Below are positions 25,491-63,110 of a stretch of DNA of 64,000 bases, one piece after another. Location of the stretch: the NCBI RefSeq assembly GCF_026151205.1, contig NC_087074.1:19388740-19452739 (forward strand), written 5' to 3'. A program made the translations under genes and the position numbers. Every line of letters begins with the position of its first letter. Positions within the stretch are counted from its first letter, which is position 1. The notes below the pieces were generated by a model that saw only the letters and a program-made list of their open reading frames with translations, had not been told where the DNA came from and did no database searches. The DNA is from Bolinopsis microptera (Eukaryota > Ctenophora > Tentaculata > Lobata > Bolinopsidae).

Positions 25491-25880
25491 ACACAGCTGG
25501 AGGTAGGCAGTGAAATCTCTAGTTTTACTATAAGACAATTTGCACCCCTACTGAGTCTACAATTACTTACAGTTGTTGACAACAACTTAATTTAACGTCA
25601 CGATTCTGATAAAACATCATACTTCACTAAACTTAAAACTAGTAAGTAAAATTTAATTCACTAACGCTAAAAACGAAGGTCCCCAATGTTTTGCTGTAAA
25701 TAAATCAATCGTGTTCAGTGTATTGAATAATCTAGAATTGCGTCAATCATCAGAAATGTTGACCAGCAACCACTAAATGATTATATTATATCAAACATTT
25801 CATCTTAACGTCATGTTTAAAACCTTTTTTCCCCGAAAATCATGCCAGTAGATGAATTAATGGAGCGGGGGGAATGCAAC

Positions 25881-25940
25881 GTCAATTAATGTCAATTAAT
25901 GTCAATTAATGTCAATTAATGTCAATTAATGTCAATTAAT
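25881..25940. repeat. (GTCAATTAAT)6 subterminal array
   Basis: Six perfect tandem decamers at the left end of family A. Confidence 0.97.
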
Positions 25941-26547
25941 GTCAATGTCAGTTTTGCAAAATTTTGGAATACTGACATTAATTGACACGATATTTTTCGA
26001 CCAGAGATTATGTAGTTCTACCATATTTTTAGCACTTTAGAACGTTTATATCATCAATTTATTCACTACTATCACATATGGAAATGTGAAATGTGAAAAA
26101 AATTCAGATCATTAAACAATAAAACTAAAATAATACGGTTTCCCGAAATTTAATTTTCTTAAATGGGCGTGGCCATCCAAGGGCGTGGTTCTCAACATCA
26201 TCAGAACTTAAAACCCACATTAAACGAAATGCCTTCATGACATTTATATTTGAATAACGAATCTTAAACAGCTAACATTACTCCTTCATACTAAAAAAGC
26301 CGATTCTAGATATTTTACCTGTATAAGAAACCAATAAAATATGGGCGTGGCCGGTGGGACCGAAGATGGAAGAGTTGGAAGCTGAAATTTTTTTTGGTGG
26401 TCTTTAAACCTAAGGATTAACAGATAAGAACATACTCATAATTATTCAAGGACATTTTGTTTTTTTGAACCGGTCTAACTTACATAGACGTGAATATCTT
26501 GAATATTTATCGAATAATGATAATCTCAAATTTCAAGACATATTAAT

Positions 26548-26627
26548 GTCAATTAATGTCAATTAATGTCAATTAATGTCAATTAATGTCAATTAATGTC
26601 AATTAATGTCAATTAATGTCAATTAAT
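26548..26627. repeat. (GTCAATTAAT)8 subterminal array
   Basis: Eight perfect tandem decamers at the right end of family A, in the same orientation as the left array. Confidence 0.97.
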
Positions 26628-26895
26628 GTCAATGTCAGTTTGGGGTTTTTATGGAATACTGACATTAATTGACGTTGCATTCCCCCCAATGGAGCTACAG
26701 CTTGGAAAATCATTACAATTCATTTTCAAATAAAAATCAATTTTTTACTTTTTTCCACAAAGGTATCACCATCATGAACGGGTTATCTTCAGAAGGTCAA
26801 GCAAAAAACGTACCCCAACATTCCCTAACAATACTGGAATCCCCAAGCAGCACAACAAGGCCCATATTACAGTAGGAAATAATGAGAACAGTCCC

Positions 26896-29577
26896 CTAAT
26901 CCTGATGAGGATGGTCCTCCTGAGGAGCAGCCTCCTGTTCTGGTTGTTCCCTGACATCCTCCCCCCAGTTATAGCCCCCTGGCCGGGTATCATCAGGCAC
27001 CTCCCCGTACTCATCTTCTCCTTCGTCAAACAGGAGCTTCAGGAGCCGGGGTGTCTTCAGGATCTTACATCCTCCCTGAGCAAGGCGAGATGTTATGACT
27101 TGATGCAAATTTATAAATTATAATGTCAGGTTAATATCGCATTATATAATAGTTTATTAGTCTGTTCTGATAGGATTGAATTGGAATCCAAATGCACTAC
27201 ACATTCTTATCTGTAAGATGACTTCTAGATTTAAAAGTTTTTGAATCTAAAACCTTACTTTCCCGACTTTAATTTAATTTTTAGAAAGAATTCAATCAGT
27301 AACTAATTCCGTCGATTATAAAAACATAATACATACCTCAATGTTAGGAAGCACATCCTCTAAGTAGAAATAAACGTGTCCTACAGCGATACCCATGAGA
27401 TCAACTATAACTGAGTTATCAAGAAGTAATGAAAATCCAAACAAAACCTGAGATTACAATGATATGACTTTTCAATGCAAATGATTAAGTGTTGAGGATG
27501 TAAAACTGCACCAAATCTTAAAGCATTTTCGATCACACAAAATTCGGTTTAAGTAAATGATTGTAATAAAAAGGATAAATTTGAATCAGTTATCAAACAA
27601 AAAAACAAAGTGCTTACCCATGGTAAATAAGGAGCATTAAAGTTGAGCATTCCAAAGAAATTCATCCTAATGTAAGGATTTCTCTTGGCCCAGATGTACA
27701 CGAGCATGATGGTAAAGGCTTGCCCCAAAAACACTAAGTTCACGAAACATGCGCATATCGTCATCAGAAAACCACCAAAAACAAACATCATTATAAAGTC
27801 GGCTGAAATGAGAAAATGTGAATGCGGATAGAATTGTCAATTGAGCCAGTAACTGAAGATCATCAGAGAAGATTGTTGCTATAAAAAGATTGATAAGGCT
27901 ACTTTCAAGTGATGAATATGACGATTATCCTACTATCACTATCTTACTACCTTACTCGGGATTATTATAACCGGGATAAAGTGGTGGGTTTTGGAAGATT
28001 CCGCCATATTTTTCCCGGTCAAAAATTTTACCAGTCATAAAAAAACCCGCCGACTCAGATTATGGGGTTCCAAGGGGGTGGTGATCATCATATTTTACCT
28101 GAAGTCTCATATGTGCTAGAGAAGACTTTTGAAGCAGTGGATGGAGGGCTGTAACTTTATTGGCGGTTGCTACCATAATTTCGTTATAAAAATCACAATT
28201 TGGTTATAGAAATCAGATTTCAGGGTGGACCGTGATTCTCACTTTTCTTGCCCATGAAGTGAGTAAACTGTGCCACTATTTCATGGTCCACGGTGGATTG
28301 ATTACTGGAGCAGTTGAAGATGCAAAGCCAAGACGTTCCCCAATACCAAGCGGTGGGCAGGAAATTAAGCTCCGGCTGACCTTCAGAGCAGTAGCCCCAT
28401 TAGCGGACAAAATTAAAGTCTTGATAAGACAACAATAGGGGGGGGGGAGCCAAGTAGATATTTGTAGATATTTGTAGATTAATGTAGAATGGATAATCCA
28501 CGAAAAAAGTGGATGACATTCTACAAATTTATACATTTATCTCCAAAAATTCAGTAGAATTTCTGGGCACATAATTGAGATATACATTTTTTGTAGATAA
28601 ATGTAGATATTTGTAGATTATTGTAATGGATAATTCACGAAAAAAGTGGATGACATTATCCAAATATCTACAAAAATCTACTTGGCTCCCCCCCCCCCCC
28701 CCCCCCCCCCCGAACAATACAACTTCGAATTTGACGGTCAGCAGCAGGGGGATATCAATAATGATAATGGAGGGGACATTAGCGATAATGAGAATGAGAA
28801 TACGCTTTAATGAAGATTTGACTTATTATTGCTATAGATTTATTTTCCTTTAAATACTAGACGTGTCTTTTTTTCTATTTCTGAGTAATATCAGTAACTG
28901 TAAATTGAAATAACTTCTTTAACAAGTAACAAAAACAGAAATTTCGGTTGAAAATTTGTTGACCTCTGAAAAAATCTTGAAAGGTCGGCCACCGGTAAAT
29001 ACATGACCGGGATAACTTGGCGGGTTTTGGGAAATTCCGCCATATTTTTCCCGGTTATTAATTTTCCCAGTCATAAATTAACCCGCTATAATATTCCCGA
29101 GTAAGGTAGATGTAAAGAACTTTAGAATATGTTGAATATCTTACCAGTTCTCCCTCTGAAAGAGCCTTCTTCCAACATTCGACAGTACCGATATGTAAAT
29201 ATCATGTTAAATACAAAGTTAAAACCGATGGTTCCGAAGAATGTGAAGTTGGTGAAGAGTCTCCAGATCTGATATTTCCTCCAGATCAGGGACTGATTAA
29301 AATATAACTGCGAAAAGAGGATTATTAATGTTTTCGTTGATATTGATGATGTAATTTTTCTGAGTTACAAATTCTATTGATAATAATGACGGACCGATTA
29401 TAAACCTATTATTAATGATAAAATTCGAAATTAAACATCACAATTGAAATGTAAGCTCACCTGAAAGGGTGAAAGGATGTCAAGCTGAACAGCGATAGTG
29501 GTCAGTACACACGCTGTGGCGTAAGTTCGTGTAACCGGCGGAACAGCCATGTACTCCTGGTGGAATGTCTGAGCCAT
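26896..29577 (-). CDS. DERL2: Derlin (Derlin-2/3 type), five exons
   Basis: Exons: 29577-29461, 29307-29145, 27802-27618, 27447-27337, 27075-26896, all GT-AG and in frame, giving about 252 residues (derlin-2 is about 240). Derlins are rhomboid pseudoproteases of the ER membrane that help retrotranslocate misfolded proteins (ERAD). Seen: N-terminal [11 protein letters not shown], the derlin W-R pair (Q-I-W-R-L-F-T-N-F), [37 protein letters not shown], and [13 protein letters not shown]. The C-terminus keeps R-P-G-G-Y-N-W-G-E but then becomes acidic and His-rich, without the G-x-R-L end of the p97-binding SHP box, so p97 binding may be weak. Intron 3 is enlarged by nested transposons. Confidence 0.95.
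27950..29106. mobile_element. TIR element in derlin intron, TA target site
   Basis: Ends are CCTTACTCGGGATTATTATA at the left and the inverse at the right (TATAATATTCCCGAGTAAGG), each next to TA, as in Tc1/mariner-pogo type insertions. Near each end lies a direct copy of an 80-bp block (27971-28051 and 29007-29088; shared ATTCCGCCATATTTTTCCCG). No transposase. A G-capped element of family B is inserted inside. Confidence 0.75.
28438..28712. mobile_element. G-capped repeat element, family B (275 bp)
   Basis: It starts with a long G run then AGCCAA and GTAGATATTT-type decamers, and ends with the inverse (TCTACTTGGCT, then a C run of about 24). Flanks share AACAATA (28431-28437, 28713-28719), 7 of 8 positions of an 8-bp duplication. 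The interior has two direct copies of a palindromic unit with the hairpin core CACGAAAAAAGTGG (near 28499 and 28636). No ORF. Confidence 0.85.
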
Positions 29578-30055
29578 CGTCCCAGCTGATTTGAGATTTT
29601 GACTGTTAAACTCTTTAATGTTTATAGTAATTTGTAAATGTAGAATGTAGATGGAGCTTATTTAGCGTATACAATAGTCATTTATTTTTTATTTTTAAGA
29701 ATATCAGAATACTTGTTGATTTCTAATTCAAGCCTTGAAAATATTAAAAGTTAGTAGCATGTGATATATTATTTTGTCATGAGACAATGACACAACTTAT
29801 GTGTCACGAGTGAAACACAATGTTACGTACAAAATACTGACTTTTAGTTATACTATTAAATATTATAATACAATATTCAATTTGTTATAAATACATACTG
29901 TAGTTGTTACTTTATAATACACATGTAGTAAATAAAACTATTTTACACAAAAAATTATATGGCATTCTTATCAGAATGTATTCTAATATAATTTACTGAG
30001 TTTCTGAAAGTTTTGAAAAAAAGATAATAAGTAATTTACTAAAGTTAAACGTAAC

Positions 30056-30061
30056 TTTATT
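30056..30061 (-). promoter_or_regulatory. Candidate poly(A) signal of DAAF9
   Basis: AATAAA on the minus strand, about 260 bp past the stop codon. Confidence 0.45.
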
Positions 30062-30321
30062 TGTAAAAAAAGTGAAGCCAGCTTCCAATGATAAGTGTAT
30101 GATTTAATATTATAGTATAAATTATTTGATATCATAAAGTAATTTATCTTACACTGTAAAAAATACTTGATAATGAAAACTCTGACAACTGAAAACTTTG
30201 ACAAAACTTGGAAAACAAACTAAACTTTGATAACTTAATTTTGTAAAAAGCGAGCACACAAAACAAATCACAAACATCACTAATATCAGTTATAATAATC
30301 CCAACCGGGACCTCGGCACAA

Positions 30322-33300
30322 TTAACTTCCATTGAACAGCGACGACACTTTAGTGTTATCAATTTTGTGGTTGAAAAGTTCAATCTCCTCATTTCTCTTG
30401 TTTAGGAACCTTTCAACAATATCATCAAACAGTGGGTGTTCCATCTTCTTTCCTTCCATCATGGAAACGTAATGAGAGCCATTATAAAACCACCCTTCTG
30501 GAAGTTTCTCTCTCGCTGCTTCCAACTTTAGCATTTCCTTTTCTTTTGAACTCAAAGAAAATTTAGTGTATTTTTCTTTTTTTACGGGAGGTTTCGGAGC
30601 GCAGCCTTGTAACCACTGCTTCACCTGCTCTTCAGTTATTTTGTAGCCAGTGAAAATGAAACAATTCTTGCTGCCAGGAGGCAGGGGCTTGTTGAAAGTA
30701 TTGAGAGAAATAGTTTCACTTCTTGGAGTACACTCCAGGGTGTAAAGGTTGTTATCCTCCGTAAACTTAGCTCTGCCTCCAACATAGAATATAGAGCCGG
30801 ACATCATCAACCTATCAACATACACTCGTCCCTCCTTCTGGTGGAGACTCTTCAGATGGGACATGAAGCGAGCTTTACAGAGATCAGCTCCGAACGACAC
30901 TGTCAGATATGTAATGGGAATGAAGGGAGGATTTGGTTTGTATTGTAAGGAATACCATCCTGGAGCAGTAAAATGTCTTGAAATTGGCAGGGTAGATTTA
31001 GCAAATGCATAAACTGTACACATTTCTACAAGGCTATCTTTGTCTATGTAGTTGTTTCCCACAACCTCAATAATGCTGCACGAAGGGTTCAGGGTCTTCA
31101 AGAAACTAATTCTCTCATCTTTACCTTTCTGTTTGGAAGGACTACAACCGGTAACAATGATGTTGTTAACCCATCCCTCGCTACACTGCTCAATTATTTT
31201 TGGGAAACATGTTCGGTTGCTTATAAACAGATTTCGTAAGTCAATGCAAGTGCTGACGGAGGCAACATGACACGATTGCCTGGTAAACTTATCAGGATGA
31301 TGGACAATAGCAGCAACCACCTCAGGTACTTCAACATAAGCAGAAACAATGACAATAACTCGAATCGGATCATTTCCCCTCTTGCTCAGCATCTGTAGAG
31401 CTTTTTGCATGTTGTGAGCACTGAACAGCTCTTCAGAACCAAGTGGTTGTCTCAGTACAATGAAATGGTGGTCTTCTTTAGTTCCTTCTGTTACTATGGA
31501 GCAGATTTTCTCTTGGTTGCTACCAGGTATTCCAACGAGCAATGTGATGAAGATGAATGGTTCTGCTGTTTCAGATTTCATTGCTGGATTGACATCAAGT
31601 TGGTTGTAGGTGAAATTCCCCAGAGAACTTAGCATCATGTGGGGTGCAAATGCCGGGTATGTGGGATAGGAAGACTCGATCATCCTGCCCTCATCTGAAG
31701 TTCCCAAGTTGCCAACATCACTAGTTTTAACAGTCACAATATTTTCGTATCTCAGCAGGAAATCTGGAGGTAAATTTTCTGCAGACTCTGGTATATTGTA
31801 CTCCCTAAACAAAGGCAGCAAAGTGTCATTTGTGAACCTCACACCTTTCCCTCGTTGCCAGAACACCAAGCAGAACCTCTTCAGGAATGGAGGTAAGCAA
31901 TTAGAGGCATGTTCAAGGTAAAGTGCAACAGCGATTGATCCAGTTTTCTTTACTCTTATCTCCTTCAAGTCGTTTATTCTGATTTGAAGAAGTGTAGAAT
32001 AAGGTGATGTTATGTTGATGGTGTTGTCCTCCAATCTGAACATAGCTTCATAAGTGTTAACATCGTTGCACAGCAGAGAGCACGGTACAGAGTCTGCATT
32101 TTGTGCTCCAAAATGGTTCCATTGCACATAGGTAGGAATAACGTCTGTAACGATCAGCAGCTCAGAGTCATCAGCAGAGACGTCATCATTTTTCACGATA
32201 ATGTGAGACTCAAAGAATGTGTCTTGAAATACCAATGGTTTGTAGACAACTTTAGTATTTTGCAAACTAGCAATATTTGAAACAGCTGCTCCAAACACCT
32301 TCATGCTTGACTTTGAGTTTGAACTCACTTTATTTCCTTTAACATCAAAAGCTTCTAGACTCACTTCAATCTTTACAGAGCTTGCTTTGAAATTTACAAG
32401 CTGAGGATATTTGTAAGTACTGAGCTTTTCAGTGAACTTCTTTGTGAAGTATTGAAGTAGCTTTGAGGAGTTTTGTGTGGTTAAAAAGCGTTGAATAGTT
32501 CTTTGTGTAGTGGCAGCCATGGCATCATATATTGATGAAAGGAGGACCAAATCACTGGAGTCAACGTTGTCGTGTATGAAGTAAGTTCTTCCACAGCTTA
32601 GCGAACTTGGAGATTCTATAACAGAGCAAGTAATGAAGAAGGGTTTTCTAGTAACCGCATGTTTTTCCAATCCAAAAACTGTGGCACCATGAGCATGACT
32701 ATCACTTGTTTGGTTGCCATGCTCTAGATAGCTCACAACAGGATCAATAGCCTTATCCAAACTGTTATCTAGAGTTTCACTTTTTATCATATTGGACACA
32801 TTCATTATCATAGTATTCCACTGGAAATTTAACAAGATGCTTGTATCTTTCAGCAGATGTTTTAGAGATCCTAGATCAAAGTCACAGAACACGGAGAGCT
32901 TTTCAAAGTTGAGTGGTATTAGCGAATGAGTAAGTCCGAAAAATCCTTGTGAGCCATAGTCTTCGAGAGCGTATGCTTGAAGTAATGGCCATTTTTCAAT
33001 AACCATTGGGTCGAACTCATTAGAGTCATTGGAGTACGGAATGGCAATTTTATTGACACCTTGAGTCATGGAGATAAAGGAGTAAATTTTATGGTCCTCA
33101 ACTATGTTCTCATCGCTAGAGATGTTGGCATCAAGGCAGTGAATTTGAAGATCATGAACTTTGGCTAGATAGGGAAGGATGCTTTTCATGTCTTTGTGAG
33201 TGACATAAAGCTCGACTTTAGACGGCTTAATGAGCATCACAATTTCATCTGTATCAATTTCAAAGTATTTGCTGAAGCTCCCTGATTTATACATGGAGCA

Positions 33301-33507
33301 GCCAAATAAGATGAAATTAATGAAATGCCTACAGTCAGGACTGTAACGACTGTCAATTCCATTGATAGCAACAAAACCATCAATATTGTTATCAACCAGA
33401 TATCTTTGAATTTTGTTGATTCTCAACAAGCACAATGTTGACGCATCTTTCACACATGTCTTTTTCTCAGTTTGAAATGGTTGAGATATACTTCCAATGA
33501 CAACCAT
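30322..33507 (-). CDS. DAAF9: Dynein axonemal assembly factor 9 (C20orf194/Shulin) homolog
   Basis: A single 1061-codon frame, close to the vertebrate protein's roughly 1180 residues. Family features recognised: an N-terminal helix then V-A-I-N-G-I-D-S-R-Y-S-P-D-C; W-P-L-L-Q-A-Y-A-L-E; C-G-R-T-Y-F; a G-I-P-G-S block about two-thirds along; F-P-K-I-I-E-Q-C-S-E-G-W-V-N-N-I; A-P-G-W-Y; and a C-terminal L-P-E-G-W-F-Y-N-G followed by a helical end rich in E and N. The ciliate ortholog Shulin binds outer dynein arms, holds them inactive and helps deliver them to cilia; the vertebrate protein is an ARL3 effector. It is probably cytoplasmic. A splice acceptor (TTTCTTTTTAG) lies directly before the GTG-ATG start, so a 5' exon probably exists upstream. 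No intron interrupts 3.2 kb of coding. Confidence 0.92.
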   Translation of the reverse strand: MVVIGSISQPFQTEKKTCVKDASTLCLLRINKIQRYLVDNNIDGFVAINGIDSRYSPDCRHFINFILFGCSMYKSGSFSKYFEIDTDEIVMLIKPSKVELYVTHKDMKSILPYLAKVHDLQIHCLDANISSDENIVEDHKIYSFISMTQGVNKIAIPYSNDSNEFDPMVIEKWPLLQAYALEDYGSQGFFGLTHSLIPLNFEKLSVFCDFDLGSLKHLLKDTSILLNFQWNTMIMNVSNMIKSETLDNSLDKAIDPVVSYLEHGNQTSDSHAHGATVFGLEKHAVTRKPFFITCSVIESPSSLSCGRTYFIHDNVDSSDLVLLSSIYDAMAATTQRTIQRFLTTQNSSKLLQYFTKKFTEKLSTYKYPQLVNFKASSVKIEVSLEAFDVKGNKVSSNSKSSMKVFGAAVSNIASLQNTKVVYKPLVFQDTFFESHIIVKNDDVSADDSELLIVTDVIPTYVQWNHFGAQNADSVPCSLLCNDVNTYEAMFRLEDNTINITSPYSTLLQIRINDLKEIRVKKTGSIAVALYLEHASNCLPPFLKRFCLVFWQRGKGVRFTNDTLLPLFREYNIPESAENLPPDFLLRYENIVTVKTSDVGNLGTSDEGRMIESSYPTYPAFAPHMMLSSLGNFTYNQLDVNPAMKSETAEPFIFITLLVGIPGSNQEKICSIVTEGTKEDHHFIVLRQPLGSEELFSAHNMQKALQMLSKRGNDPIRVIVIVSAYVEVPEVVAAIVHHPDKFTRQSCHVASVSTCIDLRNLFISNRTCFPKIIEQCSEGWVNNIIVTGCSPSKQKGKDERISFLKTLNPSCSIIEVVGNNYIDKDSLVEMCTVYAFAKSTLPISRHFTAPGWYSLQYKPNPPFIPITYLTVSFGADLCKARFMSHLKSLHQKEGRVYVDRLMMSGSIFYVGGRAKFTEDNNLYTLECTPRSETISLNTFNKPLPPGSKNCFIFTGYKITEEQVKQWLQGCAPKPPVKKEKYTKFSLSSKEKEMLKLEAAREKLPEGWFYNGSHYVSMMEGKKMEHPLFDDIVERFLNKRNEEIELFNHKIDNTKVSSLFNGS

Positions 33508-33587
33508 CACCTAAAAAGAAATAATGTAAAATAAATGAAATAGTTCAACTCAATTATAAAATTTCGCAATACATTAGAGTTAAATAG

Positions 33588-33617
33588 GATACAAGGATAC
33601 AAGGATACAAGGATACA
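33588..33617 (-). repeat. (TTGTATCC)n LINE tail
   Basis: Four tandem 8-bp units (GGATACAA on the plus strand) mark the 3' end of the LINE fragment that follows. Confidence 0.8.
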
Positions 33618-36891: not shown

Positions 36892-36892
36892 G

Positions 36893-52484: not shown

Positions 52485-55400
52485 ATGAGTGCTGCTAATC
52501 ATGTAAAGAACGGTGTAAAGGGGGATCCAGATTGCGAACATGGTGAAACCTTCAATGTCACCAGTATAAAGCAGAGTCTGGTCAGTATAATTACTTTTCT
52601 GTATTGGTAGTTATGTGATCCATCATTAGAATAGATATAAGGTACCTTCACATAATTCTATGTGAATAGTACATTTGAAGACTGCCAAGATTATTAGATT
52701 AGTGACATTTAAATTAGGTAATTGATGAAACCGTGAATCTGATCCATGAGGCTTGATGCCGACTTGATATGGAATGTGCAATGTGAGCTCAAATTACATA
52801 TTCCAACTGAAAACAGTTTATTCATATTGCATCCATGAATTTGTGTAGATCTCATAAATGTAATAAAATTATTATTAAAATGTTACAATGATATAAAATT
52901 ATTGATTTAATAACAGAACTCAATACATAACAGAAAAACAGTAAAACCCCGATTTACCATAAAACCCCGATTTACTGCAGCTTTTTCCTTTCTCCCAAAC
53001 TCTGCGGTAAATCGGGGTATTACTGTATTCAGTTCCGAAAGTAACATATTGACACATTTATTTCAGTTATCTCCCGCCTATCTGCACACCAACAGCACAA
53101 GTCATACTTGGGCATTTTCCGCTGTTGCTGAACTTATAGGTATGTCAGATCTTTGTTGTATTCGCAAAACGTTGCAACAAATCTTAGTCATAGATATTTT
53201 AAAGATGATCAATAATCTAATTAAACTCGGGGCTTTTTGATACGCAGCAATGTTAGCGACGTATTTCTTGCCAATTTTTCGCGTATTTCGACTAATATAT
53301 AAGATTCTCATGAATTTATTTTTTATTTCCAAATTCAAATAAATTTTACATCAATCTGTTCCATTACTGCATTATATTATGTAGTGTTGGTACATAAATC
53401 ATAATTAGGTTAGCCGCAAGTAATACTATAAGCTTATTAGGGGTGGAGGGCACTGATTGCGGTCTGTTTGGACTGTAGAGAGAGTTCATACGTACTTCAT
53501 ACGTAGTTCATACGTACTTCATACGACAATGCGGAGTTAATAAGGGTTAATTTCTAAAACGTTTAAATAAAAATGGAAAGCGGTTCAAGACGGGAGTGAT
53601 GAGGTGTAATAGTCGTGGTACAGGGTGTACGGACCTTATGATCATGGAATGTGGTGCCTAATAATGACTTAATTATCCACGAGAAAGAACTGATTATGCG
53701 ATTATGTTAAATACAATTGGATACGTGAGGCCGTGAGGGCACTCCGAATAGAATTGCTCACCTAATGGGGGTTTTGACTCATCGGGTAAATACTCCTACC
53801 CTTTTTAACTGCGGCAGTGAAATTCCGGCCGAAGGCGGGTTACACTAGTATTAATAATAATAATATTATATTTATGTTAGATACAGCCATACTCTGTTGA
53901 ATACATCCCATCTCGTTCGATCTTGGAAATTATGCAACTGAAGACCGGGTTAGCAATTCTTATTAATTTAATGTAATATAACGCTAAATTATTTTTTTCC
54001 GGTTTTTTATTCGAATAAATAAGTTATACATGAACCAGTAACGGACCAATTTAAACTGTGACATAATTATTTGTTTAACAAAATGAGATATGCTTCCTCC
54101 CTGAAAATCAGCACTGGACATAATATTATCTCAAAATAGGCAATATCAATATAATTAGTTTGATCATTTATTTAAATTAAATCAAATATCATTCAATTTG
54201 GCATGTTATTCACTTTATGAATCCAAATCTAATCTTAAACAATAATCTCAGAATGTGTGTCTGTGTGTGCACGTTTAATTTCGGAGCGGCTTAATCAAGA
54301 AAATGGTTAGAGTTATGGGACTGGTTTTTTCGGTATAGTGCCGAGAAAAAATGATCAAGGTTTTTTAAATCGGTCGGTGGTAAGTGGTTTAATTGATGGT
54401 TTTGTACCACAAATGTGACATAACACAAGGATATAACTTGTGAACTCGGCTAGTATATATGAAACATTTGTCAATTGTCATGGAGTTGTAGAGGGAGTTA
54501 TGTGCCTCGCCGGGCTAAAGTAGTGGATGACCTTGCTGTACGGCAAGTTAAACAAGGATCTGAAACTACTAGGTTCCGTACAGACTCAACTCTGCACCCG
54601 TGTCAATATGTTCATTATATGCAAGCCTCTTGATTTATAAAATGGCTCACGTTTTTCCCTCCTCGCTCTCTCTCCCATTACTACATATTATGTAGCGTTG
54701 GTAGTTGGTACATAAGTCATAATTAGGTTAGCCTCGATATTCACTTTCATCTAATACTATAAGCTTATTAGGGGGGGGGGGGGGGGGGGAAGCCACTCAT
54801 TGCGGTCCGTTTGTTTACTTTCACGACAATGTAATGCATGTTTTCAAATATAATAGGCGGGTGTGGTGCGGATTAAATAAGGGTTAATTTCTAAAACGAT
54901 TTAGATAAAAATGGAAAGCGGTTCAATTGCTCACCTTATGCCGGTTTTGTCTCAGCGGGTAAATACTCATACTCTTTATAACTGCTGCAGTGAAATCCCG
55001 GCCGAAGGCCGGGTTACACTAGTACTATCATAATACGGGTTATACGGGTAATACGGGTAATACGGGTAATACGGGTAATACATACTAAGATAATACGGGT
55101 AATACATACTATGATAATACGGGTAATACATACTAGGATAATACGGGTAATACATACTAGGATAATACGGGTAATACATACTAGGATAATACGGGTAATA
55201 CATACATGTACATTGTACTAGGATATTTATGTGTTAGTTGTTAAACAGGTTAGTTCTGAAATACGTGAAATCACCGTTGCGTAATATTGCGACTTAGTCT
55301 CCGTCTCATAATTGTACAGATAAATGTACTGTAGGTAAATAAATACTGTATAGTTAGTGAGAGCACAGAGCACAGTGCTCTGACTAACTACATCACGGAA

Positions 55401-55863
55401 TACACAGTGCACTGAATGTACACACAGCAGCACTGTAAAACAGCACCTGACTACACGTGCTGGTGTCACGTGATGTCTCTGTTACTCGCCATGTTAACAC
55501 ACAACACTCAGTATATATATCAGTTTACAAAGAATTACTCCAATTGTGGGCAGTGTTAACACTTGGCACCGCGCCAGGCTCGGTACTCTAAAGAGAGCCG
55601 CTCTGTGCATTGTGGTATCACATGACGGAGTATTGTGGACTCTCTTAGATCACGAGATATCGTGCAGGGAGCTCACTCTGGCCACGTGACTGTCATCACG
55701 TACACGTGACTGTCTCACTTAATCACCGCTGTAATATCACACCACTCACTTTGCTGGCTGATTATTCCTTTTGTGGCATAAACGATAGGGTGAAGGATGT
55801 CAAGTGTGAGTTGTGACTGTATATATATATTGCGAGTGTAAGGAATTATCTACTTTTGATGGG

Positions 55864-55949
<86 letters not shown>

Positions 55950-58900
55950 CTGTTAATATATGCAGGAATTAGTTGAATATTCCTTTACATAACATAATAT
56001 GCAGGAGTTTGCCTCGCATAATTGTGTGCCTGTTGTATTATATTTATGTCTCATGAGACACATTCATATATTGACATAATCTTACACTCAAATAATTGTA
56101 TTTTGAAGTTATAGGCACAAGACAAATGGGCATTGGGCGGTGCGTCTTTTCCGTACACGATATTATATGGCTTCGTAGATCAGACCTTATTTGTATATAA
56201 GGCTAGGCGTACAAAGGGCGTTTTGAATAGTGCATTGGGAACAGTAAATTATTACTAGAAATTTACGGATACATTATCTACAGGAGATTAAGTTCGCAAC
56301 CAGAGGGTATCTACTGTGTGATGTGAACTTTGAACCATTTAAATATGACAGCTGATCGCATTGCGTCAGTAATGAAACTCTCAGTCATTCACTTGATGCT
56401 GAGTATTTTATTTTATTACTCGCTCCACACTTAGAATCAGTTGAGGTCAGATCAGTTTTCTCAGCCCTCAAATTTACCCAGGGGGCAAACGTATAATTAC
56501 TAATTAAGTACATACATCTATTGCACTTTTTTTTAAATCACCTTATTTCCCTCAATAAACGTAATTTAGAATAATGTAGTGACTTTGTAAAAATAAGACT
56601 CTGATATTTTTCACTTAATGTAAGCTTAAATCTTAATATCAACAATATATTTACAAATCATCTCTAAATTCATGAATCCATCTAAATGTGTTTGGGTCGG
56701 TTGTTCTCCATCCTTTTGATTTGAGTTCGTCTGTTCTGGAACCAAACTCTGATATTCTCTGACGTCAACCCGAGCACTGCTGCCAAACTTTGTCTCCTCT
56801 CAGTCGAGATATAGTTACAGTCGTCAAACTCCCGTTCTAACACGTCCAGCTGGAATGTAGTGAACCTGGTTCTCCTCCTCTTCTGTTTTGGAGCCTTGCC
56901 AAAAGAAGAAGGGGTCTGAGCTGGGGTTCCAGGTGGTGTTAGGATCTGGTTCTGGATAGCAGGAGCAGGAGAGGGTGTTCTCAGGTTGTGCTGATCTGCC
57001 TTGTTGGGTAGAGGGAAGTCAGGAGGAAAGAAGAACTGCGGAGGGGAGATAGAACCAGGGGTGGTAGGTGGAGTGGTGGTGTTCAGAGTAGAGGACAACA
57101 TAGGTACAGGTGTGAGTAGAGGGGTCGGTAAAGCAGGAGTCTCTGGTTGTACTTCTAGCTTAGTTGTTGGTAGCTCCAATCGGTAAGGTTTAGAACGATC
57201 AACATTCCTGTATCCAAAGCTCCGTTTAGAGTAAGGGTGAGGGCTTGGTACTGGAGTAAGAGTAGTGGCGTAAGGAAGAGTAAGAGGTCTAGAGTTGATG
57301 TAAGGAACACCAATAGACTGGAGATTTGTGTAAGGAGGAGGAGTCAGCGATGTAAGGTATGGAGTTCCAAAAACAGGGTTTCCTCTGTAATGAGCACAGA
57401 GACTAGGCGAAGTTGCCATCTGTATATCGTGATTAGGATTAGATCTTTTGAAGAGTGCATTGAGGTAAACTTCGAAGGAGGAACTCATAATGTATTGTAC
57501 TTTATTAATTTATAGTAAATTGATGTAGAAGTTGATGACGATAACTGACAATAAACCTTATGAGTCGGCTGAGTTATATATTGGTAACGATCCATCCTGA
57601 TACATCCTGATTGAGTTCTCGAGTGTCCAATTTAGAAAAGCTAAACCTGCTCTCATGCTGCATAATTTGTAAACACTCCGCTGATTTAGATGGACTCATA
57701 TCACATGTCCGATATGGGATCCAATCAGCTGTGTCTGATCAAGAGATCACATCCAATGAGCCATAACTGATCACATAGCTAATGGATCTTGTATCCGACT
57801 TACTTACAACCTTGACACCAGCTAAGCGTTGAACTTTGACATCACTGATATCAGATGACAGCCTGCTTATCACTGATATCAGATGACAGCCTGCTTATCA
57901 CTGATATCAGATGACAGCCTGCTTATCACTGATATCAGATGACAGCCTGCTTAACTCGGACTCGGTTACCGGACTAAATAATTCAATAACCGGGAAATCG
58001 CTATTCACACATATAATATGACTCAAACATCTATATAAGTGTAAACGCTCGCTCACTCGGTACAATTATGGTTTACACAAATATAGACACCTCACGAGGT
58101 CAATATATATCCCGCTCCGTTTGCGTGCATGGTACCTACTAGTGCCGTGCATGGTACCTACTAGTGCCGTGCATGGTACCTACTAGTGCCGTGCATGGTA
58201 CCTACTAGTGCCGTGCATGGTACCTACTAGTGCCGTGCATGGTACCTACTAGTGCCGTGCATGGTACCTACTAGTGCCGCTCCGTTTGCGTGCATGGTAC
58301 CTACTAGTGCCGCTCCGTTTGCGTGCATGGTACCTACTAGTGCCGTGCATGGTACCTACTAGTGCCGTGCATGGTACCTACTAGTGCCGTGCATGGTACC
58401 TACTAGTGCCGCTCCGTTTGCGTGCATGGTACCTACTAGTGCCGCTCCGTTTGCGTGCATGGTACCTACTAGTGCCGCTCCGTTTGCGTGCATGGTACCT
58501 ACTAGTGCCGCTCCGTTTGCGTGCATGGTACCTACTAGTGCCGCTCCGTTTGCGTGCATGGTACCTACTAGTGCCGTGCATGGTACCTACTAGTGCCGCT
58601 CCGTTTGCGTGCATGGTACCTACTAGTGCCGCTCCGTTTGCGTGCATGGTACCTACTAGTGCCGTGTCTATATAATGTTGTAACTTACAAAACTTATTGA
58701 CTTAATGACTCAGCCTATACTACATGGAGATTTGTTACTATATAGACCTATAATTACTACAAATGCACTGTCAGCAGACGACGCCACCCACAATATAACT
58801 ATAACTATATATCTAACTATAAATATATAACGCTGAGTCCAGGTAGGTACATGGTACCTACTTGAGGAGCTATTGATCATTAGACACATAGGAATTGCTA

Positions 58901-61900
58901 CCGAATGTATATTATAATATACAACAAACATATGATAAATGTTTAATAAATTACCTAGTTTGAAACTCGCTCAAGCGAATCAGTGTTTTGGTGTAACTTT
59001 AACAAGTAAAATAGTCGCATTAATAGTGACTTAGATAGTGAATGTTCTAATACAACAGCTGTCAATATATTCTTACAGACAGCATTAAGCTCGTCGACTA
59101 CTATCACGTGTAAAAAAACTATGTTTCCAGTCCTTCAAACAGAATTGGTAAAATATTGTGATACCGTAGGTAAGTCGCATAATCTAGTATTCATTAATAA
59201 TTTGATTATAATGGATTATTAATAGATAATTTGATAAGAGTTCGAAGAAGACAGATCTTACAGTTTCTCGCCTGATTAGATTACTGATGACCAAACTCAA
59301 TTTTTTTCCATAATCAGAGGAAAGGAACATCGCATAAATTCCTGATTCCTGAGGAAAGTAATTGATTAACTTAGTGAAAGTAAGCAAAAAAACTATATGA
59401 AATTATCTTTCCCTCTGACACTTAGGGGTCGATCACATATTACGTAATCAGCCGAGGGGGAGGGGGTTTCCAAATGATTACGCTAGTGTAATTTTGACTC
59501 AATAGCTATGTGTAAAACTGATTACGGAGGGGGAGGGGGGTTACAAATTGTCCAAAAAGTGATTACGTGATATGTGAACGACCCCTAAACTTATTGAAGG
59601 GTACACATACCATATTCGACACGCACGGAAGTTCAACACACACTAAAGTTCGACTCTGTCGAACTTTGGTGCGCTACTTGGACTATAGTTCGACACGCAC
59701 TGAAGTTCGACAAGACTGTCGAACCTCAGTTCGCTACCTGAACAGGTCGTACTAAAGTTCGACAAGAGAACTGCGATTGGGTAGATAAGATAAATCTTGT
59801 AATTTAGATTAGCTTTAAAAACTCAGTTTCATTCAGTTTTATTTCATTACGTTTAATGACAGACTTTCATTCAACAATTATGAGTCACATATGATAAAGT
59901 TTGATAACGTTAATAGAAACTGTACATAATATAAATAATATTTAAAGTCAACAAGCAACCATGGATCCAACACACTTCAAATAATCCGTCCTTTCGAAGT
60001 CATCATAAGACAGGATAATGTTGTTCAGCCTCCTGTCGTAGTCCTTCCACTTTTTCTGTTGAGGAGGTGGGGCTGTCATCTTTTGGTCAATCATATTATT
60101 TGTATATCTTAAATGAGGGCAGCTGGGTCATATTTGCCATAAAACCCAAACTGGTTTTAAATCAGTCAACTTATGGTCTTCTATTCTTCTATTATTGGTT
60201 AAGCTTCGTACTTTCGTAGCAAACACTACAATCATTTTACAATTTACGCCAAATACATATAGATTATATAGTGAACCACACTTAAACCATTCTCAACATC
60301 ATATTTTAAGTCTATCTTAAATGAGGGCAGCTGGGCCAAAAACCCTAGAATAGTTTATTTTCATAGCAACGTACTGTAAGTTTGTAGTACTGTAAGTTGG
60401 AATAAATTGTTTTTGATTTATGATTAAATTTTGATCGAACAATTGGCTAATTAAGTTAAATAAGAAGATTTTCGGGATTTTATGTTAATTTAAGACTCGG
60501 AGAGCATTACATCTGTAAATTGTAAATGGCATTGTACCTGTAAATGGCAGAGCACATGTAAATTGTAAAAGGCATTATTGAATTGAAGTACGCACGCTGT
60601 GTCGTGGCCCGTGATCGTGGGTCGAACTGTCAAATTATATACATGGTTGAGTACGCTTATATGGCATGGTATGAGGTCAAAAACAAATATGCTTCTACTG
60701 CAAAGATCTGGGATCTGCACGGTGCTGTCACTTTTTCAGGGGGTGCCCCCGCCACCCTGGTTACGTCCTTGATATCTTGATAATTGGCAAATTACAAGAT
60801 GGACACAGGGCCACAAAAACAGAGAAAAACATCCTCTGAGAAGATATTGTATAGGGTCTACATTAATCAGGTGACGTGAGACGCTCGTAATACATAACAG
60901 ATTTATGTACGCCAAAAAAGCGCGCATTTGCATGATATAACAGTGGCCGGCGGGGTGCCATACAAATTTATAGTTTGATTCATGGATTATATCGGGAAAA
61001 ATATATCCACAAACTGAATTTTCAATGATCTAGCATGTCATCAAGGCGGACGAGGTAGCCAATCAAAATATGAAGCTGACTTCAAAAATCAAACCCAGCC
61101 ACGTATACATATGTTAGACGTTAGCGATATAATTATAAGGTATTTTTCGTTATCAAGATAACACCACTGATTTGTACACACCTGATACCAAACAAATCTG
61201 TCTGAAATAATGGGTTTGCCGACACAGCAAGGTCAGCAAGCTTTCAGAGGATTTTGGGTTCCATCAGATGCCTCTTACGACCATTTCTCCAACCTTTTCC
61301 GCATGTCTTAAGGCCACTTTTTACCACCTTTCTTGTTCGTCAAATATGTTTAGTTGTCGACATCATTGGTAACATAAACAGCCTCGATTAATCGGCAATC
61401 TTGAACGATGTCCACAACTAAAGATATTTGACAAACAATTAAGGTGGCAAAAACTGACCTTAACGACACGTGGAAAAGTTCGGAGAAGTTGGTCAGCCGT
61501 AAAGGACATCCAATGGAACTCAGAAACGCCAAATATCCTTAGGCAGCATCTTGTATCGGCAAACCCATTTTTCATACCAATTTGTCTGTACTAGATTTCT
61601 TTCAGACAATGCGTACGACCCAGACGTCAATGCGACCCAACTGAAAATTGACATTGCTGACATCGAGGGGATGACATGCTTGACATTTTTGGATAACGGC
61701 GCTGGAATGTCCCCGCATACTTTGTATAAGATGCTTTCTTTTGGTTTTTGTGACAAGGTAAACTCCAAAAATAAATCAGTCAAATATCTAAAGTGAGTTA
61801 AATAATTATGCTTTCAGACCAGTAGTTGATAGTTGGTACTGTAACTGCAATTAATGTTTCAGACTAAAGGTATCATTAATGTCGAAAATTCATCAGTAAT

Positions 61901-63110
61901 TTCTTGTTGCAGGACAAATACGCTGTGACTCGCCACAAACCGGTTGGTCACTATGGTAACGGCTTTAAATCTGGCAGTATGAGGCTTGGGAGAGATGCAC
62001 TCGTGCTGAGCCGACACGGCCACGGCAAAGGTTCCAAATAGTATTCTTTTAAACATTTTAGTTGATTGCCATAAAATCTATTATACAGTATGTAATACCA
62101 CCGATTCATTGTTTCATTTAATGATCTCACCTGATTGACCTTCCTATTTTTAGATAGTATCGTTAGTGTGGGCTTGTTGTCTCAGACGTATCTAGACGCA
62201 ATTAAGTCAGAGACAATACTAGTACCAACTGTAAGCTGGTCCTACGTAACACACGAGCGTATTGAGTCCCCTGATGCTGAGGCCAGTCTACAGAGTATTA
62301 TCAGGTACTTTTCTAACTTTTAACTCTACGCCAATTTAAGGGTTGTATTTTATCACCATTTTGTTTAGCAGTTTAGAATAAGCTGTCTAAATCCGACCAA
62401 TTAAAGGGCTTAGTTTAATTACAATTTTGTTTAGAATAAGGGGGGGGGGGGGGGGGGGGGGTACCGACGGACATTAATGGCAGTGTTTTAAAATTTTGCT
62501 CAGACTGCCATTAATGCCCATTAATGCCCATATTTAATAGAAAAACGGGCAAAAATGGGGAAAAAAGTATGGGCATTAATGGCAGTATTTTAAAATTTTG
62601 CACATTAATGCCCATTAATGCACATTAATGCCCATTAATGCCCATATTTATTAGAAAAATGGGCAAAAATGGGAAAAAAACATGGGCATTAATGGCAGTA
62701 TTTTAAAATTTTGTTCAGACTGCCATTGCCATTAATGCCCATTAATGCCCATTAATGCACATTAATGCCCATTAATGCACATTAATGCCCATTAATGCAC
62801 ATTAATGTCCGTTGGTACTCCCCCAGAATAAGCTGTTCAACATAAGATGTTTCGTGTCATTTAGTTATATTGTCACCGGGCATAAACATCACAAGTAAAG
62901 CTGGTCTGGCTTTACTCAGATCCGGGATAAACTAGTCAGGAGATTTCTATTTTATGTTTTAATCTTTGTAATCACTAAACCTCTCCTTTGAATCTTATTT
63001 AAAAGAAAGTATTTTTGAAGTCTGATGGGGTTAAATTGAATTGTGTTTCAGGTTCAGCATTTTCAAAAACGAGGCTGCAATTCTCTCCACTATTGCTACA
63101 AAAATAAAAA
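52485..63110 (+). CDS. MORC-family GHKL ATPase, 5' part (six exons in window)
   Basis: Exons: 52485-52580, 53067-53139, 61606-61757, 61913-62030, 62154-62304, 63052-63110; all phases agree, and the gene continues past the window. MORC proteins are nuclear ATPases that dimerise, clamp DNA and compact or silence chromatin. ATPase motifs: L-H-T-N-S-T-S-H-T-W-A-F-S-A-V then E-L-I-D-N-A-Y-D-P-D (residues about 54-63, Mg-binding Asn; the Asp codon is split across intron 2), D-N-G-A-G-M (86-91), V-G-H-Y-G-N-G-F-K-S-G (118-128), and G-L-L-S-Q-T-Y-L in exon 5. It is closest to MORC3/MORC4. Later parts (S5 domain, CW zinc finger, coiled coil) are not in the window. Exon 1 is less certain: it is chosen because it is ATG-initiated and in phase, with a weak GTCAGT donor. 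Intron 2 is 8466 bp and holds a homeobox gene on the other strand. Confidence 0.9.
52939..53025. mobile_element. 87-bp MITE of pogo/Tigger type in MORC intron 1
   Basis: Ends CAGTAAAACCCCGATTTAC and GTAAATCGGGGTATTACTG are inverted; the left terminal motif is also repeated directly once (AAAACCCCGATTTAC). No ORF. The CAGT..ACCCCGATTTA type is common for small pogo derivatives; this assignment is from memory of the family. Confidence 0.75.
53355..53848 (+). mobile_element. Helitron-like non-autonomous element, copy 1
   Basis: Starts TCTGTTCCATTACTGC after an A. Ends with GGCCGAAGGC hairpin, GGGTTACA and CTAG before a T: the Helitron pattern (TC start, hairpin then CTRR, insertion between A and T). 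It shares most blocks with 54669-55023. Confidence 0.7.
54669..55023 (+). mobile_element. Helitron-like non-autonomous element, copy 2
   Basis: Starts TCTCTCCCATTACTAC and ends with a perfect hairpin CCCGGCC-GAA-GGCCGGG, then TTACACTAG before T. The base before the start is C, not A. A G run of about 19 lies inside (54772-54790). Confidence 0.7.
55035..55207. repeat. Two-level minisatellite (GGGTAATAC and 24-bp unit)
   Basis: Four GGGTAATAC-type units lead into about six 24-bp units (ATAATACGGGTAATACATACTAGG type). The Tyr/Pro/Ser repeat ORF on the minus strand is an artefact. Confidence 0.9.
55454..55708. promoter_or_regulatory. Cluster of four CACGTG E-boxes in MORC intron 2
   Basis: CACGTG at 55454, 55467, 55683 and 55703, three of them as CACGTGA. 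It lies about 1 kb past the 3' end of the homeobox gene. Possible bHLH-type enhancer; sequence evidence only. Confidence 0.35.
55868..55947. repeat. (GA)n microsatellite
   Basis: About 40 GA dinucleotides with one interruption near the start. Confidence 0.95.
55948..56681. other. MORC intron 2, 3' flank of homeobox gene
   Basis: AT-rich; includes the homeobox gene's 3' UTR on the minus strand. No other feature. Confidence 0.5.
56682..57488 (-). CDS. Divergent homeodomain protein, nested in MORC intron
   Basis: 268 residues in one exon, ATG to stop. The first 200 residues are Pro/Thr/Ser-rich and probably disordered. The homeodomain spans about 202-261: F8, L16, F20, L40, W48, F49, N51 and R53 are all conserved, with Gln at position 50 (so a TAAT-type core site is likely). 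Helix 3 reads E-N-I-R-V-W-F-Q-N-R-R-T-Q-I-K-R. T54-Q55-I56 in place of the usual (M/A)-K-W is unusual, and I cannot place it safely in the ANTP or PRD class. No hexapeptide, paired box or LIM domain. There is no intron in the gene. A TATA-like TATATAA lies about 90 bp upstream. It is nuclear and probably a developmental regulator. Confidence 0.93.
   Translation of the reverse strand: MSSSFEVYLNALFKRSNPNHDIQMATSPSLCAHYRGNPVFGTPYLTSLTPPPYTNLQSIGVPYINSRPLTLPYATTLTPVPSPHPYSKRSFGYRNVDRSKPYRLELPTTKLEVQPETPALPTPLLTPVPMLSSTLNTTTPPTTPGSISPPQFFFPPDFPLPNKADQHNLRTPSPAPAIQNQILTPPGTPAQTPSSFGKAPKQKRRRTRFTTFQLDVLEREFDDCNYISTERRQSLAAVLGLTSENIRVWFQNRRTQIKRMENNRPKHI
57574..57580 (-). promoter_or_regulatory. Candidate TATA box of the homeobox gene
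   Basis: TATATAA on the minus strand, 86-92 bp before the ATG, which suits a short 5' UTR. Confidence 0.55.
57841..57952. repeat. Four perfect 28-bp repeats upstream of the homeobox gene
   Basis: Period 28, each with the palindrome CTGATATCAG and AGCCTGCTT. It starts about 350 bp upstream of the homeobox ATG. Confidence 0.95.
58114..58664. repeat. Two-unit minisatellite (22 bp and 11 bp modules)
   Basis: A 22-bp module (GTGCATGGTACCTACTAGTG plus CC) alternates irregularly with an 11-bp module (GCTCCGTTTGC). Order from the left: spacer, seven 22-mers, then mixed single and grouped 22-mers separated by spacers. Copies are nearly identical. Each 22-mer has palindromes GGTACC and ACTAGT. A degenerate copy lies at 58848. 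ORFs here are artefacts. Confidence 0.95.
58665..59424. other. MORC intron 2, no gene seen
   Basis: AT-rich with several in-frame stops on both strands. Confidence 0.5.
59425..59585. mobile_element. GGGGTCG-family MITE, complete copy
   Basis: 161 bp. The left end GGGGTCGATCACATATTACG and right end (inverse of GGGGTCGTTCACATATCACG) are inverted repeats of about 25 bp, flanked by TA on both sides. Two G-rich blocks and one CTATGTGTAAAACTGATTAC block lie inside. Other copies: 8990-9152, and an end at 2957. Confidence 0.88.
59615..59770. repeat. GTTCGAC hairpin cluster
   Basis: Six AGTTCGAC-type motifs with inverted partners, including the 10-bp hairpin AAAGTTCGAC-TCT-GTCGAACTTT (59645-59667) and a second hairpin near 59705-59724. 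No ORF. Confidence 0.75.
59771..61199. other. MORC intron 2, no gene seen
   Basis: Contains a 25-bp direct repeat (CTTAAATGAGGGCAGCTGGG) near 60109 and 60318, and a fragment GGGTGCCCCCGCCACCCTGG then TTACGTCC near 60739 that resembles a transposon end common in aquatic invertebrates. Confidence 0.5.
61200..61575. mobile_element. Diverged foldback element with about 175-bp arms
   Basis: Left arm 61200-61375 and right arm 61398-61575 are inverted copies (shared blocks: ATGGGTTTGCCGA, GTTCCAT, CTTTTCC, GTCAAATAT, TTTAGTTGT) at perhaps 70-75 percent by eye. It lies just before MORC exon 3. Confidence 0.7.
62441..62824. mobile_element. G-capped repeat element, family C (384 bp)
   Basis: In MORC intron 5. 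Flanked by the 8-bp duplication AGAATAAG (62433-62440, 62825-62832). Starts with a G run, GTACCGAC and GGACATTAAT; ends with the inverse (ATTAATGTCC, GTTGGTACT, CCCCC). Inside are decamers CCCATTAATG and CACATTAATG and about three tandem copies of a unit with a hairpin core GGCAGT..AAAATTTTG..ACTGCC (the middle copy lacks the closing ACTGCC). No ORF. Confidence 0.88.

What the first reader, a model, noticed from the sequence alone, without database searches (positions are those of the whole stretch)
25867..62824. Three transposon families share one G-capped, decamer-repeat, hairpin-core design
Elements at 25867-26687, 28438-28712 and 62441-62824 have different sequences but the same plan: a run of at least five G, a short family-specific head (AATGCAAC, AGCCAA, TACCGAC), AT-rich repeats with a 10-bp step starting with G (GTCAATTAAT; GTAGATATTT; GGACATTAAT), a hairpin core, then inverted decamers, with the whole unit duplicated inside the element. 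All have 7-8 bp target duplications (AATGGAGC; AACAATA; AGAATAAG). The 10-bp step equals one DNA helical turn, which suggests a protein array bound on one face of the DNA. I know no described family with this exact plan; an 8-bp duplication would allow hAT, P or KDZ (Kyakuja/Dileera/Zisupton) type enzymes.
Basis: partly seen in the sequence, partly recalled or inferred. Interest (0 to 1): 0.88.

Follow-up and report, generated by a model that had tools for sequence, protein, structure and literature searches.

The report
G-capped jumping genes with ten-base arrays
Five families of small jumping DNA pieces with unrelated sequences share one layout in this animal-type genome (runs of G at the tips, stacks of ten-base repeats, a hairpin-like core, and the same end block at both ends in the same direction), which makes them a new variant of the known 'foldback' kind of transposon; the enzyme that moves them was not found.

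Summary
The three window elements are real insertions, and a blind scan of fetched sequence gave two further families with the same plan (F4, F5). Exact ends genome-wide: F1 137, F2 135, F3 29, F4 713, F5 230; reversed-pattern controls 0. All five have G caps, 10-bp subterminal arrays, a quasi-palindromic core, and the end core in direct (not inverted) orientation at both ends. One-unit solo elements exist. F5 lengths form a 10-bp ladder.

Three corrections. G caps also occur on TTAA elements without decamers. The window F2 sits inside a larger repeat whose joined flanks without F2 occur 129 times. Target duplications are 8 bp in F1 (29 of 29), 7-8 in F3 (2 sites), but mostly 6 in F2/F4/F5, with a T....A bias resembling the hAT/P target rule.

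Best reading: non-autonomous cut-and-paste transposons moved in trans by an unidentified transposase that reads phased decamers as multiple binding sites, as shown for Hermes and Galileo. No transposase was seen in the long copies read, and no MULE domain lies between the ends compared. hAT and Merlin searches did not complete; P and KDZ were not searched. The plan is a new variant of foldback-like transposons.

The parts
25859..25866 (.). F1 left target duplication AATGGAGC
25867..25880 (+). F1 G6 cap and head AATGCAAC (terminal inverted repeat)
25881..25940 (+). F1 left array, six GTCAATTAAT
25946..25977 (+). F1 left quasi-palindromic core TGTCAG..CTGACA
25977..25986 (-). F1 single inverted decamer of the left unit
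26548..26627 (+). F1 right array, eight decamers, same orientation as the left array
26633..26664 (+). F1 right core
26664..26687 (-). F1 inverted decamer (26664-26673) and inverted head with C6 cap (26674-26687)
26688..26695 (.). F1 right target duplication AATGGAGC
28438..28711 (+). F2 element: G10 cap, AGCCAA head, decamers 28454-28483 and 28593-28622, cores 28490-28520 and 28627-28657, inverted decamers 28662-28681, inverted head and C24 cap 28682-28711
28431..28437 (.). F2 left flank duplication AACAATA (right copy 28713-28719; in the sister copy L047 8 bp if one C of the cap is counted)
27947..29108 (+). larger repeat that carries F2 (extent from the L031-L034 match); its joined flanks without F2 occur 129 times in the genome
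62433..62440 (.). F3 left target duplication AGAATAAG (its last G adjoins the cap)
62441..62824 (+). F3 element: G cap, TACCGAC head, three cores at 62479-62498, 62581-62600 and 62694-62713, decamer arrays, inverted head and C5 cap
62825..62832 (.). F3 right target duplication AGAATAAG

Best explanation
F1-F5 are non-autonomous cut-and-paste DNA transposons. Each end is a recognition module: G cap plus short head (the strand-transfer end), decamers spaced one helical turn apart, a quasi-palindromic core, and decamers in the opposite direction. A transposase supplied in trans would bind several decamers together and use the core as a paired high-affinity site, much as Hermes uses its phased, partly palindromic subterminal repeats; array length then drifts by single decamers. 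The end module lies in direct orientation at both ends, so recombination or slippage between the two can leave one-unit 'solo' elements, which still carry both heads and have their own target duplication. The target bias (T at position 2, A at position 7 of eight) points to a hAT/P-like enzyme. Shown: insertion, ends, duplications, 10-bp steps, direct modules, solos, joined flanks without F2, F1 youth. Inferred: binding, in-trans supply, the origin of solos. Unknown: the transposase superfamily (hAT or P type about 0.45).
For: 29 of 29 F1 copies held with both ends have a perfect 8-bp duplication. Joined flanks of the F2-bearing repeat: 129 exact matches, control 0. In 27 of 27 two-unit F1 copies both 32-bp cores are present and arrays run from 2 to 11 decamers; both inverted decamers are exact in 26 of 27. 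33 of 45 F5 head-to-head distances typed from the first 100 listed places are 8 or 9 modulo 10 (residues chosen after looking; binomial 2e-14). Module direct at both ends in F1, F2, F3 and F5 by alignment score (135 v 41, 90 v 55, 119 v 54 and 141 v 55, 98 v 47); the F4 core is direct by reading. Solos L020 4748-4918 and L021 4480-4614 with duplications. F1 interiors of 18 copies differ by a median 1.9%. Target bias: 6-bp cores T first 12 of 17, A last 11 of 17 (5e-4 after allowing that G or C next to the cap cannot be seen); F1 T2+A7 23 of 52 in 26 sites (p 0.03; three ambiguous sites left out). Hermes passages; hobo and P target motifs.
Against: No transposase was seen in any long copy read: the seven long F1 copies hold nested elements or inserts without long frames (named by eye, not scanned against Pfam), the long F3 copy holds satellite-like DNA, and two F4 copies hold pyrimidine-rich DNA. 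hAT ends usually begin CAGGG-like (recalled); these begin with G. F2/F4/F5 show 6-bp, F1 8-bp duplications, so one enzyme for all is unproven. The F1 target bias is weak. 8 of 30 non-F1 sites had no match or one of 4-5 bp. In the F4 elements the arrays of the two ends are inverted to each other. Core folding is well beyond shuffles in F1, F3, one of two F2 and one of two F4 units, marginal in the others and in F5.
Confidence: 0.68

Rival explanations
1. Mutator-like (Phantom/FLYWCH MULE) foldback elements, as Muta1 and Tm1: terminal motif plus short tandem repeats, moved by a MULE transposase.
For: Muta1 has 8-9 bp duplications, a terminal motif and 12-bp repeats, and 10 of 12 long-TIR Aedes families carry 9-15 bp repeats; Tm1 likewise, mostly 9 bp. 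This genome holds 88 MULE matches, one at the start of the window, followed by a 15-bp array at 1014-1133; a FLYWCH frame lies in L028.
Against: Of 87 typed MULE places (of 88) and 324 typed end positions, five end-MULE pairs lie within 6 kb and none has the MULE between two ends; the nearest is 2 kb outside an F4 copy (the listed ends are only a part of all). Muta1 shows no target preference; 6-bp duplications are outside 8-10. The MULE-linked array in the window has a 15-bp step and no G cap beside it.
Confidence: 0.2
2. Merlin-type elements: terminal GG, 8-9 bp duplications, internal tandem repeats.
For: Published Merlin features match the terminal G and the 8 bp of F1 and (with one cap base) F3.
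Against: 6 bp in most F2/F4/F5 sites. PF12762 could never be searched. A zinc-ribbon-like frame in L028 looked Merlin-like to me but gave no Merlin family.
Confidence: 0.12
3. Convergence: the five families use different transposases (8-bp and 6-bp cutters), and G caps and decamers arose repeatedly, the caps being slippage-grown G runs as on TTAA elements.
Against: Same period, direct cores and same order of parts in all five; heads share a weak CAA(C/G)-like motif 2-4 bases inside the cap (motif chosen after looking); a T....A centre in both 6- and 8-bp sites.
Confidence: 0.3
4. Ordinary satellites or simple repeats that happen to lie beside G runs, not transposons.
For: Arrays are tandem; F4 and long F3 interiors are satellite-like.
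Against: Exact ends, duplications, 129 joined flanks without F2, dispersed copies.
Confidence: 0.01
5. Rolling-circle (Helitron/Helentron) elements, which also carry hairpins and tandem arrays.
For: Hairpins and arrays inside the elements; Helentron-borne arrays are reported in oyster (title and start of abstract in the listing).
Against: Helitrons make no target duplication (recalled); F1 has 8 bp in 29 of 29.
Confidence: 0.01

Closest known systems
Muta1 and related MULE families of Aedes aegypti ('type 2 foldback'), PMC5225508 (passages)
   Same: Short terminal motif, then many copies of a short tandem repeat; several families in one genome; non-autonomous copies with varying repeat number; 8-9 bp duplications
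   Different: 12-15 bp repeats in Muta1 and Muta5, in Muta1 with 3-4 bp spacers, inside TIRs; no G cap in the passages read; no target preference; transposase-coding copies known
Tm1 of root-knot nematodes (Mutator/Foldback), PMC3169594 (passages)
   Same: Terminal motif, arrays of 13-15 bp repeats of varying number, a hairpin motif in some copies, MITE-like forms
   Different: Mostly 9-bp duplications, asymmetric outer motifs, hairpin between the TIRs rather than in each end module
Galileo (P superfamily), PMC3688188 (two sections) and PMC3573991 (passages)
   Same: Tandem repeats in the ends; several THAP sites shown by footprint and gel shift; repeat number varies between the two ends
   Different: ~210-bp repeats in one subfamily of D. 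mojavensis, 7-bp duplications, long TIRs
Hermes (hAT) subterminal repeats, PMC10368747 (passages)
   Same: Phased short repeats, a quasi-palindromic repeat pair, asymmetric ends; hAT elements make 8-bp duplications with the nTnnnnAn rule (hobo)
   Different: Few repeats, no long arrays; hAT ends CAGGG-like, not G-capped (recalled)
MULEs with tandem TIRs, PMC3310237 (passages)
   Same: Extra copies of the end module inside the element, with slippage or recombination considered as origin
   Different: Plant elements with long TIRs, two in tandem at each end

Membership tests
Foldback-like / subterminal-array non-autonomous DNA transposon (structural kind) | End regions built of tandem short repeats of varying number | tested here: met
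Foldback-like / subterminal-array non-autonomous DNA transposon (structural kind) | Arrays lie within long terminal inverted repeats | tested here: not met
   Strict inverted repeat only ~28 bp in F1 (read); modules direct in F1, F2, F3, F5; F4 arrays are inverted
hAT | 8-bp target duplication | tested here: inconclusive
   F1 29 of 29, F3 2 of 2 with one cap base counted; F2/F4/F5 mostly 6
hAT | nTnnnnAn target | tested here: inconclusive
   bias present, weak in F1, clearer in the 6-bp sites; P elements share it
hAT | CAGGG-like terminus (recalled) | tested here: not met
   termini are G runs
hAT | hAT transposase with these ends | not tested
   PF05699 did not complete
MULE/Mutator | MULE transposase between these ends | tested here: inconclusive
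   none of 87 typed MULE places lies between ends among 324 typed end positions; most F4 ends and part of the others were not listed
MULE/Mutator | 8-10 bp duplication | tested here: inconclusive
   F1 yes; F2/F4/F5 mostly not
Merlin | terminal 5'-GG and 8-9 bp duplication | tested here: inconclusive
   terminal G met; duplication met in F1, and in F3 with one cap base
Merlin | DDE_Tnp_IS1595 transposase with these ends | not tested
   PF12762 did not complete
P superfamily | 7-8 bp duplication and palindromic target with T2/A7 | tested here: inconclusive
   F1 and F3 length and the bias fit; F2/F4/F5 length mostly does not
P superfamily | THAP/P transposase with these ends | not tested
   no search made
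KDZ (Zisupton etc.) | KDZ transposase with these ends | not tested
   no search made
Helitron | no target duplication (recalled) | tested here: not met

The most novel reading that the evidence does not exclude
F1-F5 are one previously undescribed group of DNA transposons whose transposase reads a one-turn decamer ladder around a palindromic core and whose ends are direct repeats of a self-sufficient mini-transposon. Solo units (F1 135 and 171 bp; F3 candidates of about 72-114 bp by end pattern) are the basic mobile entity and the longer elements are composites of two, as insertion sequences make composite transposons. The same target geometry (T....A centre) gives 6- or 8-bp duplications in different families.
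Probability: 0.2. Interest if true: 0.78.

Novelty: new variant of a known kind. Interest (0 to 1): 0.52.

Why it matters
Five sequence-unrelated families in one genome keep the same period (10 bp), the same order of parts and direct end cores, so the layout rather than the sequence appears to be what is selected. That gives a natural series for asking how many phased sites a transposase needs, and how arrays inside transposons seed satellites (two F4 copies and a long F3 copy carry such DNA).

Tried and rejected
Autonomous copy among long F1 elements: seven fetched (1.5-4.3 kb). L012 (an F4 element plus a 352-bp insert), L014, L016 and L017 (reverse-transcriptase or other retroelement frames, named by eye) are long by insertions; L015, L018 and L019 have inserts without frames above 91 aa. 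Autonomous F3 in L051: satellite-like interior. A Merlin-like zinc-ribbon frame in L028: no Merlin family. Block-shuffled control of G-capped pairs: rejected as a control because 200-bp blocks keep flanks and heads together (25.8 pairs, 14.5 with duplication per shuffle, against 58 and 37 real). Organism: not established; I guessed a ctenophore from assembly size (recalled, untested), and genes such as Spt16-like and homeobox frames were named by eye.

Papers: passages or sections seen of PMC3688188, PMC4079207, PMC3169594, PMC3706591, PMC3573991, PMC5225508, PMC10368747, PMC3310237, PMC3276498, PMC8101967, none read whole; other papers only as search listings. That this exact plan is not described rests only on the searches, none of which asked for the whole plan; timed out; two searches were malformed.
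Full report
Observation. F1 is 25867-26687 between two copies of AATGGAGC; F2 is 28438-28711 between two copies of AACAATA (one extra G at 28712); F3 is 62441-62824 between two copies of AGAATAAG. The window lies at C3:19388740-19452739 of a 264.65-Mb assembly in 232 contigs. The best period was 10 or 20 in 13 of 13 end stretches of seven decamer elements, each above the best of 500 single-base shuffles (by little in F3's first and F5's first stretch); 0 of 3 stretches of two G-capped TTAA elements exceeded their shuffles.

The plan is genome-wide and covers five families. A blind scan for G-run...C-run pairs with inverted heads in the fetched DNA (289,085 bases, whose output was cut; 356,193) recovered F1, F2 and F3, and gave two unlisted families: F4 (L012 3755-6138; L020 6410-8440; head TGTCAY, decamer type GGACATAGGC) and F5 (L028 3175-3653; head TCCAAG, decamers such as GGGGAATTTT). 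Exact end patterns counted 137 (F1), 135 (F2), 29 after removing overlapping rows from 58 (F3), 713 (F4) and 230 (F5); the reversed patterns gave 0 each time. As a control on the cap base, G caps gave 58 pairs of which 37 had an 8-bp duplication, C caps 8 and 0, A caps 27 and 0, T caps 46 and 1. Most fetched loci were chosen because they hold F1 or F2, so these counts are not a random sample of the genome.

Insertion is proven. All 29 F1 copies for which I held both ends have a perfect 8-bp duplication; L005, L010 and a lone end in L011 were not counted because only one end was held, and L001 repeats the window. In 15 of the 29 the match needs no base of the cap, and in 12 of these the caps are exactly G6 and C6; F1 caps are 5-7 long except C13 in L020 and C20 in L007. 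The window F2 sits in a larger repeat of about 1.17 kb shared by L031 (the window copy), L034 and L047; the joined flanks of that repeat without F2 occur 129 times, control 0 (a 30-base pattern, surroundings not read). So the caps belong to the element, and the F2 copies with these flanks are one insertion event that was then copied.

Target duplications differ between families. Of 30 non-F1 sites (15 F2, 2 F3, 7 F4, 6 F5), the match that needs no cap base is 6 bp in 17, 7 in 5, 5 in 2, 4 in 1, and none in 5. Left out of the 30: L034 and L036 (ends not parsed) and L041/L043 and the window F2 (flanks as in L047). F4 and F5 are 6 bp in 10 of 13 sites; both F3 sites are 7, or 8 if one cap base is counted. 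Some F2/F4/F5 sites also extend to 7 or more if cap bases are counted. Among the 17 six-bp cores T is first in 12 and A last in 11. A G or C next to the cap cannot be seen as part of the core, so I tested 23 of 34 against 0.384 rather than 0.31: p = 5e-4. In F1, 23 of 52 positions 2 and 7 carry T and A (26 sites; three ambiguous ones left out; p = 0.03). This is the frame of the hobo rule nTnnnnAn and of the P motif GTCCGGAC as listed in PMC3276498 (passages). The 6-bp sites look like positions 2 to 7 of the 8-bp frame; whether the enzyme cuts 6 bp, or the cap overgrew one base at each junction, is open.

Anatomy. In 27 two-unit F1 copies the first array holds 2-10 decamers and the second 3-11 (interrupted arrays counted by their longest block), each followed by a 32-bp core TGTCAG...CTGACA; both inverted decamers after the cores are exact in 26 of 27 (L029 lacks one). 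The left and right cores differ in their loops, and each is kept but for point changes. The other two copies, L020 4748-4918 (171 bp) and L021 4480-4614 (135 bp), are a single unit with both heads, the right-type core and their own duplication. In F1, F2, F3 and F5 the end unit is repeated in direct orientation (scores 135 v 41, 90 v 55, 119 v 54 and, for the long F3 copy, 141 v 55, 98 v 47); in F4 the core is direct by reading, while its arrays are inverted. Thus the strict terminal inverted repeat is short (about 28 bp in F1), and the ends are not the long inverted arrays of a textbook foldback element. Single-strand folding of the units is well beyond shuffles in F1 and F3 (z -3.5 to -5.2), in one F2 unit (-8.0; the other -2.1) and one F4 unit (-5.2; the other -1.8), and marginal in F5 (-2.5, -2.2). 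Two further stretches were badly cut (F4 -1.3, F5 -1.2) and were redone.

Length ladder. Gain and loss of whole decamers is the main length change. The 26 F1 distances spread over more residues. F1 interiors of 18 copies differ by 0.7-10.3%, median 1.9%, so F1 moved recently.

What they carry. The seven long F1 copies fetched are long because of inserts: L012 holds an F4 element and a further insert, L014, L016 and L017 hold retroelement frames (named by eye), L015, L018 and L019 hold DNA without frames above 91 aa. None of these frames was scanned against Pfam. Two F4 copies carry about 1.4-1.6 kb of pyrimidine-rich DNA between their arrays, and the long F3 copy L051 carries a (CCCTGA)n-like array. 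No transposase was seen. The genome has 88 MULE matches; 87 of them compared with 324 listed end positions gave five pairs within 6 kb and none between ends, the closest 2 kb outside an F4 copy. Only the first 100 rows per pattern were listed, so most F4 ends and part of the others were not compared. Searches for hAT (PF05699) and Merlin (PF12762) domains did not complete, and P and KDZ were not searched.

Mechanism. I take the decamers as subterminal transposase sites. Precedents: Galileo's THAP domain binds sites inside its tandem repeats (PMC3688188, sections 2.6 and 3); Hermes gathers BED domains on phased subterminal repeats, two of which form a quasi-palindrome, and a one-base shift impairs cleavage (PMC10368747, passages). 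The F core flanked by inverted decamers resembles such a paired site, and the two ends are unequal in F1 (many decamers before the core seen from one terminus, one seen from the other), as the two Hermes ends are unequal. These are analogies; no binding was tested. Solo elements would follow from recombination between the two direct modules, or they may be the primary form.

Comparison with the known. The kind is known: Muta1 and its relatives combine a terminal motif with 9-15 bp tandem repeats in many families of one genome (PMC5225508, passages), and Tm1 does so with 13-15 bp repeats and a hairpin motif (PMC3169594, passages). What is not in those passages: the uniform 10-bp unit without spacer across five unrelated sequences, the palindromic core inside each end, direct end modules, solo units, and the G caps. 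G caps are not diagnostic: TTAA-flanked elements in L019 and L044 have them too, without decamers. The first window bases encode the end of a MULE-like protein followed by a 15-bp array, so MULEs here may carry arrays of another step and without the cap.

Verdict. Real, widespread, young in F1, a new variant of foldback-like or subterminal-array transposons. The one-enzyme claim and the superfamily are open.

Noticed in passing
window 3-728 and 1014-1133: 3' part of a MULE transposase-like reading frame (PF10551, below the cut-off in the part held; the domain hit C3:19388577-19388870, over the cut-off, spans the window start), followed by an array of ~15-bp repeats that may be its subterminal repeats.
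   Followed up: partly
L019 1729-2465; L044 2527-2822: G-capped elements beside TTAA with plain inverted repeats and no decamers; two families in the fetched DNA, so G caps recur on unrelated transposons here.
   Followed up: partly
L028 2160-2985: Element with inverted ends around GGCAGTATCGAGATAGCCCG and a tandem ~14-bp TGCGGACCACTGTC-like repeat, holding a zinc-ribbon-like frame; Merlin-like to my eye, no Merlin family hit.
   Followed up: partly
L051 ~480-1660 (reverse strand): Long array of CCCTGA/CCCTAA-like hexamers inside an F3 element, telomere-like in look.
   Followed up: no
L012 3755-6138; L020 6410-8440: Both F4 elements read carry about 1.4-1.6 kb of CCT-rich pyrimidine DNA; with 713 exact ends F4 may be a large dispersed source of such tracts.
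   Followed up: partly
window 58124-58666: 22- and 33-bp tandem repeat array (CGTGCATGGTACCTACTAGTGC) outside any element studied.
   Followed up: no
C1:3879106/3888245, C4:1930223/1944193, C10:12968812/12979436: Weak MULE-like matches in inverted pairs 9-14 kb apart, possibly the inverted ends of a large element.
   Followed up: no
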